From the NCBI GenBank assembly GCA_005223085.1, contig NJBP01000007.1:1-59081 (forward strand): DNA of 59,081 bases, in the 5' to 3' direction. The notes below the pieces were generated by a model that had not been told where the DNA came from, searched no databases, and was given only the letters and a program-made list of their open reading frames with translations. Positions 2,127-52,255 of this stretch are shown here, in pieces. The position numbers and the translations under genes were made by a program. The stretch is from Candidatus Aerophobetes bacterium Ae_b3b (GTDB lineage Bacteria; Aerophobota; Aerophobia; Aerophobales; AE-B3A). Position 1 is the first letter of the stretch. Each line of letters opens with the position of its first letter.

Positions 2127-4424
2127 TTAGCTTGACCGGGGAACATCGAGCAGCTTAATAATAGTTTCCACTTCTTGCTGATAGAAGACACTATCAATCA
2201 CCACTATTTTATTACCCTGGCCAAAAATTTTACCCTTATCTGATAAAAGAACTCGAACCACTCCCTCTACCTTTTCGGCCTCAATATACTTTAATTCATA
2301 AATTCTTCTTTTCTTTTGTCTTTCGAAGGTATCTATTTTCTCAATCTCTTCTTTAATGAGCTCAAAAGGATAAGGACTCTCCTCTAAAGTAAGTAAATTC
2401 GAAACTTCATCTATACTTAAAATCCGGGCCGGGGGAGACTTCATTCTCTCTACTATTTCTATGACTTGAGGAAGAGAGGCGTACTTTAAATAGACAAAGT
2501 TCCTCTTCTTTTGCTTTTCAAAATCATCGAGAGCGGCCAGTCTTTCTCCAATCAGTTTCAGGTGATATTCGGAATCCACAGCAGACAGAGAGTTTTTCTC
2601 CAGGATAGCCTCAATGCTACCTTTATCGGACAAAAGGCTCTGCAGGTGCCTCGCTAGAGAGGAGTCCAGAGCATACTTTAACTGATAGACCATCTTCTTG
2701 GGTTGATAAGTGTCAAAACTGGCTACCATCTCTGTTATCTGAGGAAACCTCCATCCCCGAGCCGTAATTATGAGAGCATTCCTCTCTGGATTTACCCCCA
2801 TGGTTGCTTTATCTGAGAGTAGCAGAGAAGAAGCCTTTTTAAATTCCTCGGATTGGAAAAGATCTTTTGCCCTTACATATTTTAGGGAATATAGCTCGGT
2901 CTTTTTCTGAGTCTCAAAGTTGTCCAGTTTTTTAATCTCCCCGGTTATTTGCTGGATCACCCAGTTATTGTCTACCACTACCAGGCTTTCTTCTTCCACG
3001 CGAATAGATCCCTGAGGAGAGAGGAATTTTTCCAGGAGAGAGATAACTTCGGCTTCCTTAACGTACTTTAAGGGAAAGACCTTTTTCTGAGGTATCTGAT
3101 TGGACATCTCTACGGAAGATATAGCTTTTTCTATCTTAAAGACCTGATATGCCCCATCCTCCACCACCAAACTATTAGTCTTTTTGTCTATCTTGATAGA
3201 ACCTCTTGAGGAAAGAAGAAGAAGAAGGGTCTCTTTAGTAGGTTCGGGAGAAGAGTAACGAAGGGGGAAGATCTTCTCTCTTCTCTGCTGTGGGTAAGTG
3301 CCAATTTTGGTGAGCACATCCTCAATGACCTTCATTTGATCTTCATTGTCCCTCACCAGAACTGAATTGGGAGGAGCCTCTTTAGGATTTATTTCCATCA
3401 TCCCCTGGGGGCTAATGATCTCGCTTATCTGTCGAGCAACCTCTTCGGCGAGGGCGTAGCGGAAAGTGAAAATCCTTTTGGTTCTGCCCTCTATTTCTCT
3501 CGGTCTAAGGATATGGGGTTTTATGGTGATAAGAAGATTCCCGGAGGATTCGGTCTCCTTCCAACTCTTAAATAGATTTCCCAGGATGGGTAGACCAGAG
3601 AGAATAGGAAAGCGCGTTTGTACCCTGCTCTTTTTCTCGGTTTTTAACCCACCAATGATAATGGATTCCCCGCTTTTTACGGTAATGTTGGTGGGAGATA
3701 CCTTTCGAAGAAATGTAGGCCGCTCTGGCCCAAATTCGGTAGTGTCATAGCGGGCTATCAATGGAACGATGACCATTTGGACCAGATCATCTCCGATTAT
3801 CTTTGGCAGTACTTGAAGAACAATACCCACGGTAGCATACTCATAGATGTATTCTTCAGTGACCACTCCTTCTATGATCTCACGGTTAATTTTGGAAAGA
3901 TAAGAAATATCTTTGACATCATAGATTCCTGCCACCTCTCCGCTCATGGTGGTTATCCGAGGTGCAGAGAGGACCCTGGCTTTTCCCTCCGAGATGAGGG
4001 TATTTAGAATAGCCTCAAATTTTTCTTCTCCGGTCAGGAGCCGATAAAATGTGAAAAGGAGCCCTCCTTTTTCCCTTTCTCCCACTTCGGAAAGTTCACT
4101 GGTTCCGTATTTCAACTCTGTTCCCTCTCCCGGTGTCTCGGAAGGAACTTTTACTCCGGTTAACCGCTCGAAATAAGTACCAAAAGTTTGGGCTACATCT
4201 TCACTGAGTTCCAGTACTCGGGCTTCAATTTGAACTTGCCGGATTTCCATAGGGAATTGAGGAATCATCCTCTCTATGTCTTGCAGTTTTTCCCGAGTTG
4301 CTTTAACGGTTATCCTGCCAGTAGACGTATCTACTAAAATAGAGGATTGGCTAAAAGCCTTAACCGCGCAAAAGAAGAATATTGTGGAGAAGACCAATAT
4401 TTGCACCATATTAATTTTACGCAT
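2127..4424 (-). CDS. Secretin-domain protein with seven C-terminal N1-like modules (rearranged PilQ)
   Basis: A 765-residue predicted outer-membrane secretin component. Residues 1-25 form a signal peptide (hydrophobic core followed by AFSQ). A half N1-type segment spans about 28-75. The secretin domain runs about 135-306, with RVLSAPRITT, VGIVLQVLPKI, NITVKSGESIIIGG and FPILSGLPILGNLFKS followed by LLITIKPHIL. In ordinary secretins this domain is last. Here it is followed, from about 317 to 765, by seven diverged modules of about 60-68 residues, each opening with a pattern like LKY-A and containing LLS-x-x-GSI, which resemble secretin N1 repeats. The ATG at 4424 has CGGAGA seven bases upstream. 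It is the last of the pilMNOP-linked genes and would give a periplasm-to-outer-membrane channel; that it works with the adjacent N-domain protein is inference. Confidence 0.8.
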   Translation of the reverse strand: MRKINMVQILVFSTIFFFCAVKAFSQSSILVDTSTGRITVKATREKLQDIERMIPQFPMEIRQVQIEARVLELSEDVAQTFGTYFERLTGVKVPSETPGEGTELKYGTSELSEVGEREKGGLLFTFYRLLTGEEKFEAILNTLISEGKARVLSAPRITTMSGEVAGIYDVKDISYLSKINREIIEGVVTEEYIYEYATVGIVLQVLPKIIGDDLVQMVIVPLIARYDTTEFGPERPTFLRKVSPTNITVKSGESIIIGGLKTEKKSRVQTRFPILSGLPILGNLFKSWKETESSGNLLITIKPHILRPREIEGRTKRIFTFRYALAEEVARQISEIISPQGMMEINPKEAPPNSVLVRDNEDQMKVIEDVLTKIGTYPQQRREKIFPLRYSSPEPTKETLLLLLSSRGSIKIDKKTNSLVVEDGAYQVFKIEKAISSVEMSNQIPQKKVFPLKYVKEAEVISLLEKFLSPQGSIRVEEESLVVVDNNWVIQQITGEIKKLDNFETQKKTELYSLKYVRAKDLFQSEEFKKASSLLLSDKATMGVNPERNALIITARGWRFPQITEMVASFDTYQPKKMVYQLKYALDSSLARHLQSLLSDKGSIEAILEKNSLSAVDSEYHLKLIGERLAALDDFEKQKKRNFVYLKYASLPQVIEIVERMKSPPARILSIDEVSNLLTLEESPYPFELIKEEIEKIDTFERQKKRRIYELKYIEAEKVEGVVRVLLSDKGKIFGQGNKIVVIDSVFYQQEVETIIKLLDVPRSS

Positions 4425-4464
4425 TATATATCTCCGCTATTATTTTTCTTCATTTGTGGGTCGG

Positions 4465-7398
4465 TCATTTTACCGGTCCTATCTTTCCCAAATCAATGGT
4501 CAGGGAAGGAACCTCCATCTCCATCCATTTACCTTCTTCTTTCTTTAACTCTATTCCCTGGATCTCCTCCGGTTTTACCCCCAGCATATTGGCTATGGCA
4601 ATGGCTATACGTTCCAGGGAACCCTCTTTGATGTAAAATGTCCTCACCGCAACTTCCTCAGCTCGGACGTTCATCTCCTTTACTACCTCATCAATCTGGA
4701 GTATCTGTCTTTTTAGATCCGTTACATAGATTATATTATTTTCCACTTGAGTTTTATTCTCGGAAGGATTGCTCTCTTCGGGACTACCCATTCCCTCCTG
4801 AGGAATTATGATATAGTCCCTGGTACTGCTTCTACTTTGGGTTTCTTCAGAATAGGGAAGACGAATCTTTCCGTATTCACTTATTACACCTTGAAGCTCA
4901 GATTCAGCTTCCTGGGTCGTTAAGTATTTAAGGAAGAATCTCCTGGTTACCAGTTGACCTTCCAGGATGTCTGTTTGTTTGACTAATCCATCTATACGCT
5001 TCAGATTTTTCGCTACGTCAACTACCACCAGGCTGGAGGTCTCCTCTTGTTCATCTACTTTGCCCTGGTCAGAAAGAAGGTCCTCCACTTTTCCCTTAAC
5101 CTCAGAAAGAAGAGCAAACCTGATCTCATAAGTTTTCTTCTGGGGCTGGAAGGTATCGAGCTTGGCCACCATCTTTTCGATCTGCGGAAGGTGGTAGGAG
5201 GTATCTTCCACGGTAAGAGTAGAGCTGGAGGGATCTCTCTTGAGCGTCCCTTGAGGTGAGAGGTCTTCTTTAACCACCTCGGCCACCTCCTCGAGGCTCA
5301 GATACCGGATGAAGAATTTTTTCTTCCTCATCTGCTTGGAGGGAGTATCCAGATCAGCAAGGAGATCTTCTATTTTCTTCAGGTTATAGGGAGTAGCCGT
5401 GACCACGACCTGATTTTCGGCCTCATTCACCTCTATCTTTCCCTTATCGGAAAGATAAAGGCGAGCAATTTTGGCTGCTTGAGGAGCCAAGGCAAACTTG
5501 AGGGTAAAAAGCTTCTGTGATGGTCGGAAATAATCCAATTTTGAGATAAGCTGCCCTGTCCTCATAAGATTATACCTAGTATCGGTGATGAGAAGAGAGT
5601 TGGTAGAGGAGTCGGCCTCTAGTTTACCCAGCCTGCTTAGATGGGGCTGGATAAGGGGAAAGATAGCCTCTGCCTGCACAAACTTCAAGCTAAAGCTCTG
5701 GGTAGAAAGCTGTCTGGCCGGCTCATCCAACTTTAAGATAGAGGCCGCTATCTCCTCCATCCTCTTTGGCTTATCGGTGATGAGGAGGCTGTTGGTCTCC
5801 TGGTTTAGCTCCATCTTTCCTACCTCGGAGAGAAGGGGCTTGAGGGAGCTAACTACCTCACCCACCAGAGCAGACTTGAGGGTAAAACTCTGGCTAAGAA
5901 GAGGAATGGGGCTGACCCTGATGATATTACCCATAACCTGGTACTCATAGTTATGAGGCTCAAGGATGATCTCAAGAGCCTTTAAGATAGGGATGGGTCT
6001 TTCAAAGCGAGCGCTGATCTTACCTTTAACCTCAGGGGGAGCGATTATGTTAAGGCCGGTCTTGGTAGAAAGAAGAGCTAGGGCCTCTTTTAAATCTACC
6101 CCCTTAAAGTCAAAAGGAGGAATGAGCTGATTTTCTATGGTGTCCAGCTCTTTAATGAGCTTATCTAAGATTTTTAGGTTTTTTCTTACATCAACTACCA
6201 CCAGGCTGGAGGTCTCCTCTTGTTCATCTACTTTGCCCTGGTCAGAAAGAAGATCCTCTACCCTGGTAGCTACCAGGGAAAGGGGAGCAAAGCTGATCTT
6301 ATAGATTCTTTTCCGGGGCTGGAAAGTATCGAGCTTAGTCACCATCTTTTCTATTTGGAGAAGGTGGTAGGAGGTATCTTCCACAGTAAGAGTAGAGCTT
6401 GAGGGATCTCTCTTGAGCTTGCCCTGGGGGGAGAGACTTTCTTTAACCACCTCAGCCAAATCTTTTAAGCTCATATACCTGATGAGGAATTTTTTCTTTT
6501 TCATCTGCTTGGAGGGAGTATCCAGCTCAGCAACAAGATGGTCGATCTTCTCCAAACTGTAGGAAGAGGCCTTGACCAGAATCTCATTTTTATCTTCTCT
6601 CACCTCGAGATCACCCTCAGGAGTAAGGTAGCCGGAAATGAGCTTCGCTACCTCAGAAGCTAGAGCAAACTTTAAGCTAAACAGCTTCTCTTGGGCTTTG
6701 AAGTGGTCCAAAGATAAGATGACCTCCTCGATTTTGCTGAGACTGTATCTGGTATCGGTAATGAGAAGGCTATTGGTAGAAGAGTCAACCTCTAGTTTAC
6801 CCACCCTGCTTAGATGGGGCTGGATCAGAGAAGAAATAGCCTCTGCCTGGATAAACTTCAAGCTAAAGCTCTGGGTAGAAAGCTGTCCGGCTGGCTCATC
6901 CAACTTTAAGATAGAGACCGCTATCTCCTCCATCCTCTTTGGCTTATCGGTGATGAGGAGGCTGTTGGTCTCCTGGTTTAGCTCGATCTTTCCTACCTCG
7001 GAGAGAAGAGGCTTGAGGGAGCTTTCTATCTCACTAGCTAAGGCAGACTTTAGGGTAAAACTTTGGCTAAGAAGAGGGATGGGGCTGACCCTGATGATAT
7101 TGTCCACGATCTCGTACTCATAGTCATAAGGCTCAAGGATGATTTCAAGAGCCTTTAAGACAGGGACATTTTCAAAACGAGCAATGGGAACCCTACCCTG
7201 AACTTCCGGGGTGACAATTATATTCAACCCTGTCTTAGCAGAAAGGATATCCAATAAGTCATTCAAATCTATATCCTTAAAATCAATAGAAATAGAAATT
7301 GAGTCATAAGGAATGCCTTCAGCGTGACCGAGCAAGGCTGCGTTAATCAATCCTCCAAGAAATCCCAGCAGCACCAAAACCAAAAGTAATTTTCTCAT
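4465..7398 (-). CDS. PilQ-like N-domain protein with duplicated N0 plus N1 modules, no barrel
   Basis: A 977-residue exported protein. Residues 1-27 are a signal peptide. An N0/STN domain (about 36-105; IDFKDIDLNDLLDILSAKTG and ending IIRVSP) is followed by five N1-like modules to about 425. A second N0 domain (about 427-496) and five more modules follow, then one degenerate module and a short tail from about 817 to 977. The two blocks align with a constant offset of 391 residues. No secretin barrel domain is present. N0/N1 domains in PilQ build stacked rings in the periplasm, so this looks like the periplasmic part of a split secretin. Its ATG overlaps the pilP stop (ATGA), giving translational coupling with pilMNOP. 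Confidence 0.8.
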   Translation of the reverse strand: MRKLLLVLVLLGFLGGLINAALLGHAEGIPYDSISISIDFKDIDLNDLLDILSAKTGLNIIVTPEVQGRVPIARFENVPVLKALEIILEPYDYEYEIVDNIIRVSPIPLLSQSFTLKSALASEIESSLKPLLSEVGKIELNQETNSLLITDKPKRMEEIAVSILKLDEPAGQLSTQSFSLKFIQAEAISSLIQPHLSRVGKLEVDSSTNSLLITDTRYSLSKIEEVILSLDHFKAQEKLFSLKFALASEVAKLISGYLTPEGDLEVREDKNEILVKASSYSLEKIDHLVAELDTPSKQMKKKKFLIRYMSLKDLAEVVKESLSPQGKLKRDPSSSTLTVEDTSYHLLQIEKMVTKLDTFQPRKRIYKISFAPLSLVATRVEDLLSDQGKVDEQEETSSLVVVDVRKNLKILDKLIKELDTIENQLIPPFDFKGVDLKEALALLSTKTGLNIIAPPEVKGKISARFERPIPILKALEIILEPHNYEYQVMGNIIRVSPIPLLSQSFTLKSALVGEVVSSLKPLLSEVGKMELNQETNSLLITDKPKRMEEIAASILKLDEPARQLSTQSFSLKFVQAEAIFPLIQPHLSRLGKLEADSSTNSLLITDTRYNLMRTGQLISKLDYFRPSQKLFTLKFALAPQAAKIARLYLSDKGKIEVNEAENQVVVTATPYNLKKIEDLLADLDTPSKQMRKKKFFIRYLSLEEVAEVVKEDLSPQGTLKRDPSSSTLTVEDTSYHLPQIEKMVAKLDTFQPQKKTYEIRFALLSEVKGKVEDLLSDQGKVDEQEETSSLVVVDVAKNLKRIDGLVKQTDILEGQLVTRRFFLKYLTTQEAESELQGVISEYGKIRLPYSEETQSRSSTRDYIIIPQEGMGSPEESNPSENKTQVENNIIYVTDLKRQILQIDEVVKEMNVRAEEVAVRTFYIKEGSLERIAIAIANMLGVKPEEIQGIELKKEEGKWMEMEVPSLTIDLGKIGPVK
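4948..7293 (-). repeat. In-frame tandem duplication, 1173-bp unit, inside the N-domain gene
   Basis: Two adjacent units of 1173 bp (about 6121-7293 and 4948-6120) encode the two N0-plus-five-module blocks. The offset is exact at widely separated landmarks: for example 5018-5079 and 6191-6252 are identical over 62 nt, and the segment starting at 5761 recurs at 6934. The unit is a multiple of three and preserves the frame. Boundaries are approximate because the ends are less conserved. Confidence 0.85.
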
Positions 7399-7874
7399 TC
7401 TCTCATCCTTAGCTTAACTATTTTCTTTTCGCCAACTAGGGTAACCTCGCCCTTTTTGGCCTCGAGCTTAAATACTTGAAACTCTCCGATCCGATCACCC
7501 TTTTTCACAATCCATTTCCCATCTTTTCCCTCAATTAAAGCAAAAACCCCTTTTTTATCCCATACCAGCCCGATCAATCTATATCCTGACTCTGTTACTA
7601 TTTTTTTTGGCCTGGATTTTTCCACTTCTTGCCTGGTTTCTGGTACTTGCGGTCTTGTCTCCATGCTTTCTTCAACTACTACTATCTTTTCTTTAGTCAC
7701 TAAAGGAATAAAAGGATCCCGTAACCCCTCGCTGTTGTACAAAAAAATTGGCGGTAAGAAGGACTCTATTTCGATGTCCCTTTCCTCTCCTTTCAAAGCA
7801 AAGCACCCATAGAAAGAAATGCTCATCATTACCCCGGCACCTAAGACAATCGAAGAAATTATCTTTCCCTTCAT
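7395..7874 (-). CDS. pilP: PilP-like pilus assembly lipoprotein
   Basis: A 159-residue PilP-type protein linking the PilMNO inner-membrane complex to the secretin. It has an N-terminal hydrophobic segment ending FYGC (Cys24, a possible though non-ideal lipobox), the family motif RDPFIP at about 52-57, a low-complexity linker, and a C-terminal beta domain (about 95-155; GYRLIGLVWDKKG-x-FALIE and VKKGDRIG). It overlaps pilO upstream and the N-domain gene downstream by 4 nt each (ATGA), which argues for one coupled operon. The N-terminal lipidation is uncertain. Confidence 0.8.
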   Translation of the reverse strand: MKGKIISSIVLGAGVMMSISFYGCFALKGEERDIEIESFLPPIFLYNSEGLRDPFIPLVTKEKIVVVEESMETRPQVPETRQEVEKSRPKKIVTESGYRLIGLVWDKKGVFALIEGKDGKWIVKKGDRIGEFQVFKLEAKKGEVTLVGEKKIVKLRMRE

Positions 7875-8521
7875 TCCTCTTTTTCTCGACTCCGTCTTGG
7901 CGTCTCTTTTGCAGATTGAGAACTTGAAATTTTGGGGGTCTTTTCGGCAGTTAACTCTGCTTTAGACTTGTATAAGGATAAAAGAAGATCTACCTCCACC
8001 GTATATTTCTCTTTCTCCTCAAGACTCTGCTCCCCTTTCCTTATCCCTCGCATTTTAATCTCATCAACCCATAGACCCATTATCCTACCTCTTTTATCCA
8101 TGGCGGATAGAAGCATACCCAGGGCATGATAGGTAGAAAACAAATGAATTCTCACCGGAATTCGATTGTAATATTGCCCCCCTATAACCTCCTCAGGAAC
8201 TATCTTCACATAATCAATCCCATATTTCTTCGACATCCGACCCAATTCTTGAAACACAGAAAAACTTTCGTCTTCCTTTACCAGGTAGCTCTCCAGAGAA
8301 GTCAGCTTTAAGGTTATCGCCTGGTACTTCTCTTTTAACTTTTCATATTCAACCACTTTCTCCTTAATCTGTAGAACTCTTAGATTGGCCCCCTTCACCT
8401 CTTGGTTTATTTTTTCAACAAGTTTAGCTTGAGGATAGTAAAATCCCCAATAAAAAAAGGCAATGACCCCGAGAAAGATCCCCAATCCAACTACTATTCT
8501 ACCCCTTAGCGTGAAAATCAA
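7871..8521 (-). CDS. pilO: PilO-like inner-membrane pilus assembly protein
   Basis: A 216-residue PilO-type protein: short cytoplasmic N-terminus, one transmembrane helix at about 8-30, a coiled-coil at about 35-75, then a periplasmic ferredoxin-like domain (YGIDYVKIVPEE, YYNRIPVRIHLFSTYHALG). The C-terminus is a charged low-complexity tail of about 30 residues. In type IV pili PilO pairs with PilN and contacts PilP. It begins one base after the pilN stop and overlaps pilP by 4 nt. GspM-like alternatives are possible on fold alone, but the gene order supports PilO. Confidence 0.82.
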   Translation of the reverse strand: MIFTLRGRIVVGLGIFLGVIAFFYWGFYYPQAKLVEKINQEVKGANLRVLQIKEKVVEYEKLKEKYQAITLKLTSLESYLVKEDESFSVFQELGRMSKKYGIDYVKIVPEEVIGGQYYNRIPVRIHLFSTYHALGMLLSAMDKRGRIMGLWVDEIKMRGIRKGEQSLEEKEKYTVEVDLLLSLYKSKAELTAEKTPKISSSQSAKETPRRSREKEE

Positions 8522-51163: not shown

Positions 51164-52255
51164 ATGAAAATTATTAAGATAGATCCTGACCATCCGGAAG
51201 AGAAGAAAATAGAGAAAGCCATTCAAATATTGAAAAAGGGTAAGATAGTAGCCTTTCCCACTGATACAGTCTATGGTCTCGGAGTTAGTGCTGAGAATGA
51301 GGCAGCCATAAAGAGACTCTACTGGGTGAAAAAAAGGCCATTAGATAAACCCATGACCTTGTTCTTAAGAAAAAAAGGAGGCTTCATACGGTTCGTCCAG
51401 GCTGTTCCGCTTTTTGCTCAAAGGTTGATAAATGAGTTCTGGCCCGGTCCCCTTACTTTAATCTTTAAGGCAAGCCAGGGCAGTCCTCCCAGTCTCATCA
51501 GCAAACAAGGAAAAATTGGACTAAGACTCTCGGCACATTCTATTCCCCGAACAATTATGGAAAAAGGAGAAATTCTGCTGGCGACCACCAGTGCTAATCT
51601 GTCTGGTGAATTCACCCCTTCTACTTCTGGGGATCTGGATAAAGCGTTATTAGAGGATATAGATCTTCTCATCGATGGAGGAGAGAGTCTACTAGGCGAG
51701 GAATCTACCATAGTAGATGTCACTCGGTTTCCTCCTCTTTTAATCAGGGAAGGGTGGTTACTCCCAGCCCAAATAGAGAAAGTATGGCAGGGAAAAGGAG
51801 ATGTTCTCTTTGTCTGCACAGGCAATACATGTCGAAGTCCTATGGCAGAGGGTCTATTAAAAAAGCTATGGCCTCAAAGAAAAAAAAATGAGATAAAAAT
51901 AGATTCGGCAGGAACAAGTGCCCTGCCCGGCTTGCCCTCAACTTCTTTAACCCAAAAAATAATGAAAGAAAAGGGAGTGGATATCTCTTACCATGAGAGT
52001 AAGCCTTTAAACCAAAAGATGGTGGAAGAGGCTGATTTAATCTTAGTAATGGAAAAGATGCATAAAAACAAAGTCCTGGATCTTTCCTCTTTAGCCGAAG
52101 GTAAGGTCTTCTTGCTTACAAAATTTGCTTTAGGAGTAGATGAAGAAATTCTTGATCCTATGGGGAGATCGGAAGAGAGTTATCGAGAATGCGCGAGGGA
52201 GATTGAAAAAAATATAGAAGGCGTGCTGGAAAAATTGATGGGCTGTGGCAAATGA
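51164..52255 (+). CDS. Fusion of L-threonylcarbamoyladenylate synthase (Sua5/YrdC) and low-MW phosphatase (YwlE-like)
   Basis: A 363-residue two-domain protein. Residues 1-205 are Sua5/YrdC, which makes threonylcarbamoyl-AMP for the t6A tRNA modification: [10 protein letters not shown] (31-40), KKRPLDKPM (56-64) and TTSANLSGE (141-149). Residues 213-360 are a low-molecular-weight phosphatase: P-loop CTGNTCRS (218-225) and general acid in [13 protein letters not shown] Thr at the fifth P-loop position (Thr222) is the feature known to favour phosphoarginine in Bacillus YwlE, where tyrosine phosphatases usually have a bulky aliphatic residue. In Bacillus the separate genes ywlC and ywlE are near neighbours. 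That this domain reverses McsB action is inference. It overlaps comEB by 4 nt. Confidence 0.88.

What the first reader, a model, noticed from the sequence alone, without database searches (positions are those of the whole stretch)
2127..7398. A pilQ locus split in two, with the secretin barrel first and N1-like modules after it
Seen: the 765-residue product has its secretin domain at about 135-306 and then seven N1-like modules to the C-terminus. The neighbouring 977-residue product has two N0 domains and about eleven N1-like modules but no barrel. Known: in PilQ/GspD secretins the N-domains precede the barrel in a single chain. Inference: the two proteins co-assemble, the second supplying a very tall periplasmic stack, or the trailing modules of the first fold back or face outward. 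Coupled pilM-N-O-P genes upstream support a pilus or pilus-like secretion role. I know of no described secretin with this order.
Basis: partly seen in the sequence, partly recalled or inferred. Interest (0 to 1): 0.88.

Follow-up and report, generated by a model that had tools for sequence, protein, structure and literature searches.

The report
Two-protein pilus secretin with barrel tail
In the bacterial phylum Aerophobota the outer-membrane gate for the type IV pilus (PilQ) is made as two separate proteins, and the pore-forming one carries its ring-building modules after the pore rather than before it, an order not seen in any of the other secretins examined here.

Summary
Downstream of pilMNOP (minus strand) lie two genes: a 977-aa protein with signal peptide, two N0 and ten N1 modules plus an interrupted eleventh but no barrel, and a 765-aa protein with signal peptide, secretin barrel (Pfam 143-307) and then seven N1-like modules. 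It is not an assembly join: the same adjacent pair occurs at ten loci in nine Aerophobota genomes from five families (48-88% identity to the window's barrel protein). The tail has 2-7 modules, each position orthologous across families, and is under purifying selection as strong as the barrel. Secretin hits outside the order (386-genome scan) stop at the barrel end, and 39 inspected outgroup secretins carry no N1 after it. The window's genome has no other secretin but has PilB/PilT-type ATPases and pilins. The split falls inside the last N1 module: the barrel protein starts with its second half (strong evidence), the partner ends with a segment placed as the first half (weak sequence evidence). 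Best reading: an obligate two-subunit PilQ. Split secretins are known (RhcC1/RhcC2, rhizobial type III secretion); N1 modules after the barrel I did not find described. New variant of a known kind. Structure predictions were too weak to place the tail.

The parts
2127..4424 (-). C-subunit gene (PilQ-C): signal peptide, half N1, secretin barrel, 7 N1-like tail modules (765 aa)
4347..4424 (-). predicted Sec signal peptide of the C-subunit (by eye; residues ~1-26)
   Evidence: sequence; conserved pattern in 10 orthologues
4254..4343 (-). second half (beta-beta-alpha) of the last N1/N3 module, residues 28-57
   Evidence: N1 model positions 26-52; profile alignment continuous with the barrel in outgroup secretins, E 3e-46; strands 28-32, 37-41 and helix 44-56 in a low-confidence model
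3504..3998 (-). secretin barrel domain PF00263, residues 143-307
2133..3476 (-). tail of seven N1-like modules after the barrel, residues 317-764
4425..4464 (-). 40-bp spacer between the two genes, with GGAG upstream of the C-subunit ATG
4465..7398 (-). N-subunit gene (PilQ-N): signal peptide, N0, N1x5, N0, N1x5, interrupted N1, C-terminal half module (977 aa)
7081..7287 (-). N0 domain of unit 1 (residues 38-106)
6127..7065 (-). five N1 modules of unit 1 (residues 112-424)
5905..6114 (-). N0 domain of unit 2 (residues 429-498)
4954..5892 (-). five N1 modules of unit 2 (residues 503-815)
4669..4941 (-). sixth N1 module interrupted by an insertion (residues 820-910)
4468..4665 (-). conserved C-terminal segment (residues 912-977), proposed first half of the last N1/N3 module
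7395..7874 (-). pilP-like gene
   Evidence: PF04351, E 2e-4, below gathering cut-off
7871..8521 (-). pilO
   Evidence: PF04350
8523..9098 (-). pilN
   Evidence: PF05137
9095..10204 (-). pilM
   Evidence: PF11104

Best explanation
The pair is a two-subunit PilQ. Shown: both chains are encoded next to each other after pilMNOP, both start with a signal-peptide-like sequence, and both are conserved together across the order. Inferred: both are exported; the N-subunit builds the periplasmic ring stack, its N0 domain(s) meeting PilP/PilO/PilN at the inner membrane and its N1 modules forming rings; the C-subunit builds the outer-membrane barrel. The chains meet where one N1/N3 module is divided, the N-subunit supplying the first half (beta-alpha) and the C-subunit the second (beta-beta-alpha), so one completed module per protomer pins the stack to the barrel. 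The C-subunit's tail starts only about nine residues after the barrel's last strand, on the periplasmic side, and most likely forms a second set of N1 rings or struts beside or around the upper part of the stack (a collar), stiffening it or holding it to the outer membrane. The pore serves type IV pilus extrusion.
For: Same adjacent pair at ten loci in nine genomes of five families. No other secretin in the window's genome, while PilB/PilT-type ATPases and seven N-methyl pilin-like ORFs are present. 4-bp coupling of pilP to the N-subunit gene. NCBIfam: the N-subunit best matches PilQ N-domains; the C-subunit matches GspD and PilQ from their late N-domain to their end. The C-subunit N-terminus aligns from column 109 of an outgroup secretin profile to the barrel end (E 3e-46); the N-subunit's last 66 residues align best at columns 77-101, immediately upstream, and 0 of 200 column permutations match both place and score, 3 of 200 the place. 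Tail T1-T3 dN/dS 0.13 against barrel 0.17 and hisG 0.11. Each tail position T1-T7 groups by position across genomes. Short linkers in the tail (2-7 residues) as in the N-array (1-3, apart from the N0 between its two units).
Against: No direct evidence that the chains bind. The first-half match is weak on its own (hhalign P about 0.04; the N1 model scores it no better than shuffles) and the segment stayed low-confidence in AlphaFold. The C-subunit model is poor overall (mean pLDDT 46; only tail modules 1-3 reach 65-82), so tail placement is inferred. A joint fold of the two chains could not be run.
Confidence: 0.68

Rival explanations
1. The two proteins are independent. The C-subunit makes a self-sufficient pore whose periplasmic rings are its own tail, folded back under the barrel; the N-subunit is a separate periplasmic scaffold attached to PilP.
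For: The tail alone has enough N1 modules for a ring stack and starts right after the barrel. N-subunit length varies by whole units.
Against: The tail has no N0, the domain expected to meet PilP; some members have only two or three tail modules while the N-subunit always has at least the N0 + five N1 array where fully sequenced. The C-subunit keeps half an N1 that needs a partner.
Confidence: 0.17
2. The tail is mainly an anchor rather than a ring stack: flexible struts binding peptidoglycan, a lipoprotein or other machine parts around the pore, much as AMIN domains or S-domain/pilotin pairs do elsewhere.
For: Tail length varies 2-7 and modules 4-6 can be lost; the first three modules are the most conserved.
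Against: Tail modules are ordinary ring-type N1 domains with short linkers; no known peptidoglycan-binding domain was found.
Confidence: 0.1
3. The order is a recent accident: rearranged or decaying gene, or an assembly join, with no function for the tail.
For: In the same-genus relative L032 the tail is degraded after module 3.
Against: Conserved across five families; dN/dS of tail modules 1-3 is 0.13; modules group by position.
Confidence: 0.03

Closest known systems
PilQ of type IVa pili (e.g. Vibrio cholerae 6w6m, Myxococcus 3jc8, Thermus PilQ)
   Same: pilMNOP context, N0 and N1-type modules, secretin barrel with recognisable sequence to its end
   Different: PilQ is one chain with N-domains before a C-terminal barrel: in 197 proteobacterial T4aP secretins the dominant order is AMIN(0-3)-STN-Secretin_N-Secretin (PMC7545093). 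Here two chains, and N1 modules follow the barrel.
Thermus thermophilus PilQ
   Same: tall stack: N0 plus five beta-alpha-beta-beta-alpha rings (PMC5745081)
   Different: single chain, six rings, barrel C-terminal; here about 14 ring positions in the window's N-subunit and seven more N1 modules after the barrel
RhcC1/RhcC2 split secretin of rhizobial type III secretion
   Same: N-domain part and barrel part encoded by separate genes (PMC3574062, PMC3973906)
   Different: genes are apart in the cluster, the barrel part is reported to be of Tad origin (PMC4500985), and no N1 array after the barrel is described; Aerophobota genes are adjacent and vertically inherited
GspD of type II secretion
   Same: closest barrel by sequence in the PDB search (5zdh, 6i1x); several N1-type modules
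   Different: one chain; short C-terminal S-domain after the barrel instead of N1 modules (general knowledge)

Membership tests
Secretin superfamily (PF00263) | secretin barrel domain | tested here: met
   E 2e-32, full profile 2-169/169
Secretin superfamily (PF00263) | N0/N1 periplasmic modules | tested here: met
   PF03958, PF07660 and PF21305, shared over the two chains
PilQ (type IVa pilus secretin) | encoded with pilMNOP | tested here: met
PilQ (type IVa pilus secretin) | single chain with N0-N1/N3 before a C-terminal barrel | tested here: not met
   two chains; N1 modules after the barrel
PilQ (type IVa pilus secretin) | curated PilQ model TIGR02515 above cut-off | tested here: not met
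   270.1 and 171 bits for the two chains, cut-off 284.35
PilQ (type IVa pilus secretin) | rest of a type IV pilus machine in the genome | tested here: met
   T2SSE-family ATPases of PilB and PilT size, N-methyl pilin-like ORFs, PilM
PilQ (type IVa pilus secretin) | forms an SDS-stable 12-15-mer that passes a pilus | not testable with these tools
   needs protein work
Split secretin of the RhcC1/RhcC2 kind | N-domains and barrel in separate genes | tested here: met
Split secretin of the RhcC1/RhcC2 kind | part of a type III secretion cluster, genes apart | tested here: not met
   pil operon, genes 40 bp apart

The most novel reading that the evidence does not exclude
The mature channel is a hetero-oligomer of two chains interlocked by a shared N3 module, with the barrel protein's tail forming a second, concentric set of N1 rings outside the N-subunit stack: a double-walled periplasmic conduit whose height and wall can be tuned separately by adding modules to either gene.
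Probability: 0.27. Interest if true: 0.83.

Novelty: new variant of a known kind. Interest (0 to 1): 0.64.

Why it matters
Secretins are textbook one-chain machines with N-domains first and the barrel last, and that order is built into assembly models. A stable lineage in which the barrel comes first and carries ring modules behind it shows that N1 rings can be attached from either side of the pore. It provides a natural test of which contacts (N3-barrel, N0-PilP) must lie in one chain, and makes assembly of a pilus channel from two polypeptides directly testable.

Tried and rejected
Assembly or chance artefact: rejected by conservation across families. Decaying gene: rejected by dN/dS; only L032 shows decay past module 3. 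Outward-facing tail: considered unlikely from known secretin topology (PMC10499894), not tested. HMM detection of the first half module by the N1 model alone was no better than shuffles. Search for the N-subunit C-terminus in other phyla, to find the unsplit ancestor, gave only two weak hits (E about 0.002), not followed up. Genome-contig search returned one relative only. Literature: no paper found for this order or for Aerophobota PilQ. Tandem Repeats Finder found nothing in the two genes.

Full report
What was claimed and what is there. Both ORFs exist as described. Pfam puts the secretin domain at residues 143-307 of the 765-aa protein with seven Secretin_N stretches after it, and two STN/N0 domains with ten Secretin_N stretches and no barrel in the 977-aa protein. 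A local N1 model built from the window's modules gives exact boundaries, finds an eleventh, interrupted N1 in the 977-aa protein, and finds half an N1 just before the barrel of the 765-aa protein. The genes follow pilM, pilN, pilO and a pilP-like gene, several joined by 4-bp overlaps.

Whose genome. The window is contig C42 of a 2.04-Mb, 88.6% complete MAG. The nearest named record is Candidatus Aerophobetes isolate CSMAG_2676 (L032, 87% identity), with the same gene order tilS-hisB-dtd-pilMNOP-N-C-hisG-purE (the non-pil gene names are by eye); a genome placed in the same genus (G001) carries the hit on a contig of the same length as that record. PF00263 hits the window's genome only here. The genome also holds T2SSE-family ATPases of PilB and PilT size and seven N-methyl pilin-like ORFs, so a type IV pilus is the likely client.

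Conservation. Among 17 genomes of the order, the adjacent pair is seen at ten loci in nine genomes of five families; others hold pieces at contig ends or on short contigs (G007, G012, G014). The usual N-subunit is N0 + five N1 + interrupted N1 + conserved C-terminus (589-610 aa). The window carries the N0 + five N1 unit twice (78% DNA identity between units, uneven along the length) and one G002 locus three times. The C-subunit tail has seven modules in the window, G009 and G011, six in G010, at least five in the partial G014, three in G002 (two loci), G004, G013 and G001, and two in G003. In L032, remains of module 7 follow module 3 out of frame, which reads as loss of modules 4-6. A tree of 69 modules groups each array position A1-A5 and each tail position T1-T7 across genomes: the tail is old and vertically inherited. 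Between window and L032, dN/dS is 0.13 for tail modules 1-3, 0.17 for the barrel, 0.11 for hisG and 0.35 for pilM. Modules 4-7 are less conserved than the barrel (44-46% against 54-60% identity to other families).

How unusual. A profile of the C-subunit scanned over 386 genomes (most outside the order) finds secretins in 340, but only Aerophobota hits run into the tail; listed hits elsewhere stop at profile positions 307-329 (not all matches are listed). Six genomes of one further phylum gave the same. In 39 outgroup secretin loci read in full around the barrel, no N1 follows it. Some Aerophobota genomes also have single-chain secretins in other loci (G002, G010, G016), with the usual order and in two cases a weakly scored TPR match behind the barrel. 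A published survey of 197 proteobacterial T4aP secretins gives AMIN(0-3)-STN-Secretin_N-Secretin as the dominant order (PMC7545093).

Where the chain is split. In outgroup secretins the last N1 runs straight into the barrel. The C-subunit's mature N-terminus aligns with the second half of that module (column 109 onward, E 3e-46), while the N-subunit's last 66 residues, with twelve invariant columns, align best just upstream, at columns 77-101. The second match is weak; 0 of 200 column permutations match both its place and score, 3 of 200 its place and 9 of 200 its score, and the N1 model alone does not beat shuffles. Division inside the last N1 is therefore well supported from the C-subunit side and only suggestive from the N-subunit side.

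Structure. A joint model could not be run. Tail placement is inferred: the barrel's C-terminus is periplasmic in known secretins, where S-domains bind pilotins (PMC10499894), and only nine residues separate the Pfam barrel end from tail module 1.

Mechanism. Most likely the pair forms one channel: N-subunit as ring stack from PilP upward, C-subunit as barrel, joined through the divided module, with the tail as an outer collar or second ring set. Shown: anatomy, synteny, conservation, constraint. Inferred: export, binding, ring formation, tail position, pilus function.

What is known. Split secretins exist: rhizobial and some Pseudomonas syringae type III systems encode N-terminal and barrel parts as RhcC1 and RhcC2 (PMC3574062, PMC3973906), the latter reported to come from a Tad system (PMC4500985). 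Tall stacks exist: Thermus PilQ has six rings (PMC5745081). I found no description of N1 modules after the barrel, or of any Aerophobota PilQ, within an open-access library that lacks most subscription papers. I therefore call it a new variant of a known kind.

Noticed in passing
L046:5856-6653 and L047:9183-9980 (genome G002, contigs C12 and C130): A 266-aa protein with N0 + N1 (and in L046 a sub-threshold T2SSB match) sits directly before a complete single-chain secretin that has a weak TPR match after its barrel: a second way of adding N-domains from a separate gene in the same phylum.
   Followed up: partly
L032:13017-13161: Remains of tail module 7 follow module 3 out of frame with a stop: recent loss of modules 4-6 of the C-subunit in the closest relative.
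   Followed up: yes
L048:1326-4904 (genome G010, contig C66): Two secretin genes in tandem, 554 and 635 aa, the second with about 240 residues after the barrel that match no Pfam family.
   Followed up: no
window 51164-52255: One 363-aa ORF joins a Sua5/YrdC domain to a low-molecular-weight phosphotyrosine phosphatase domain.
   Followed up: no
window 4948-7293: The two N0 + five N1 units of the N-subunit differ unevenly (60-92% DNA identity in 120-base blocks), which may reflect gene conversion between units.
   Followed up: no
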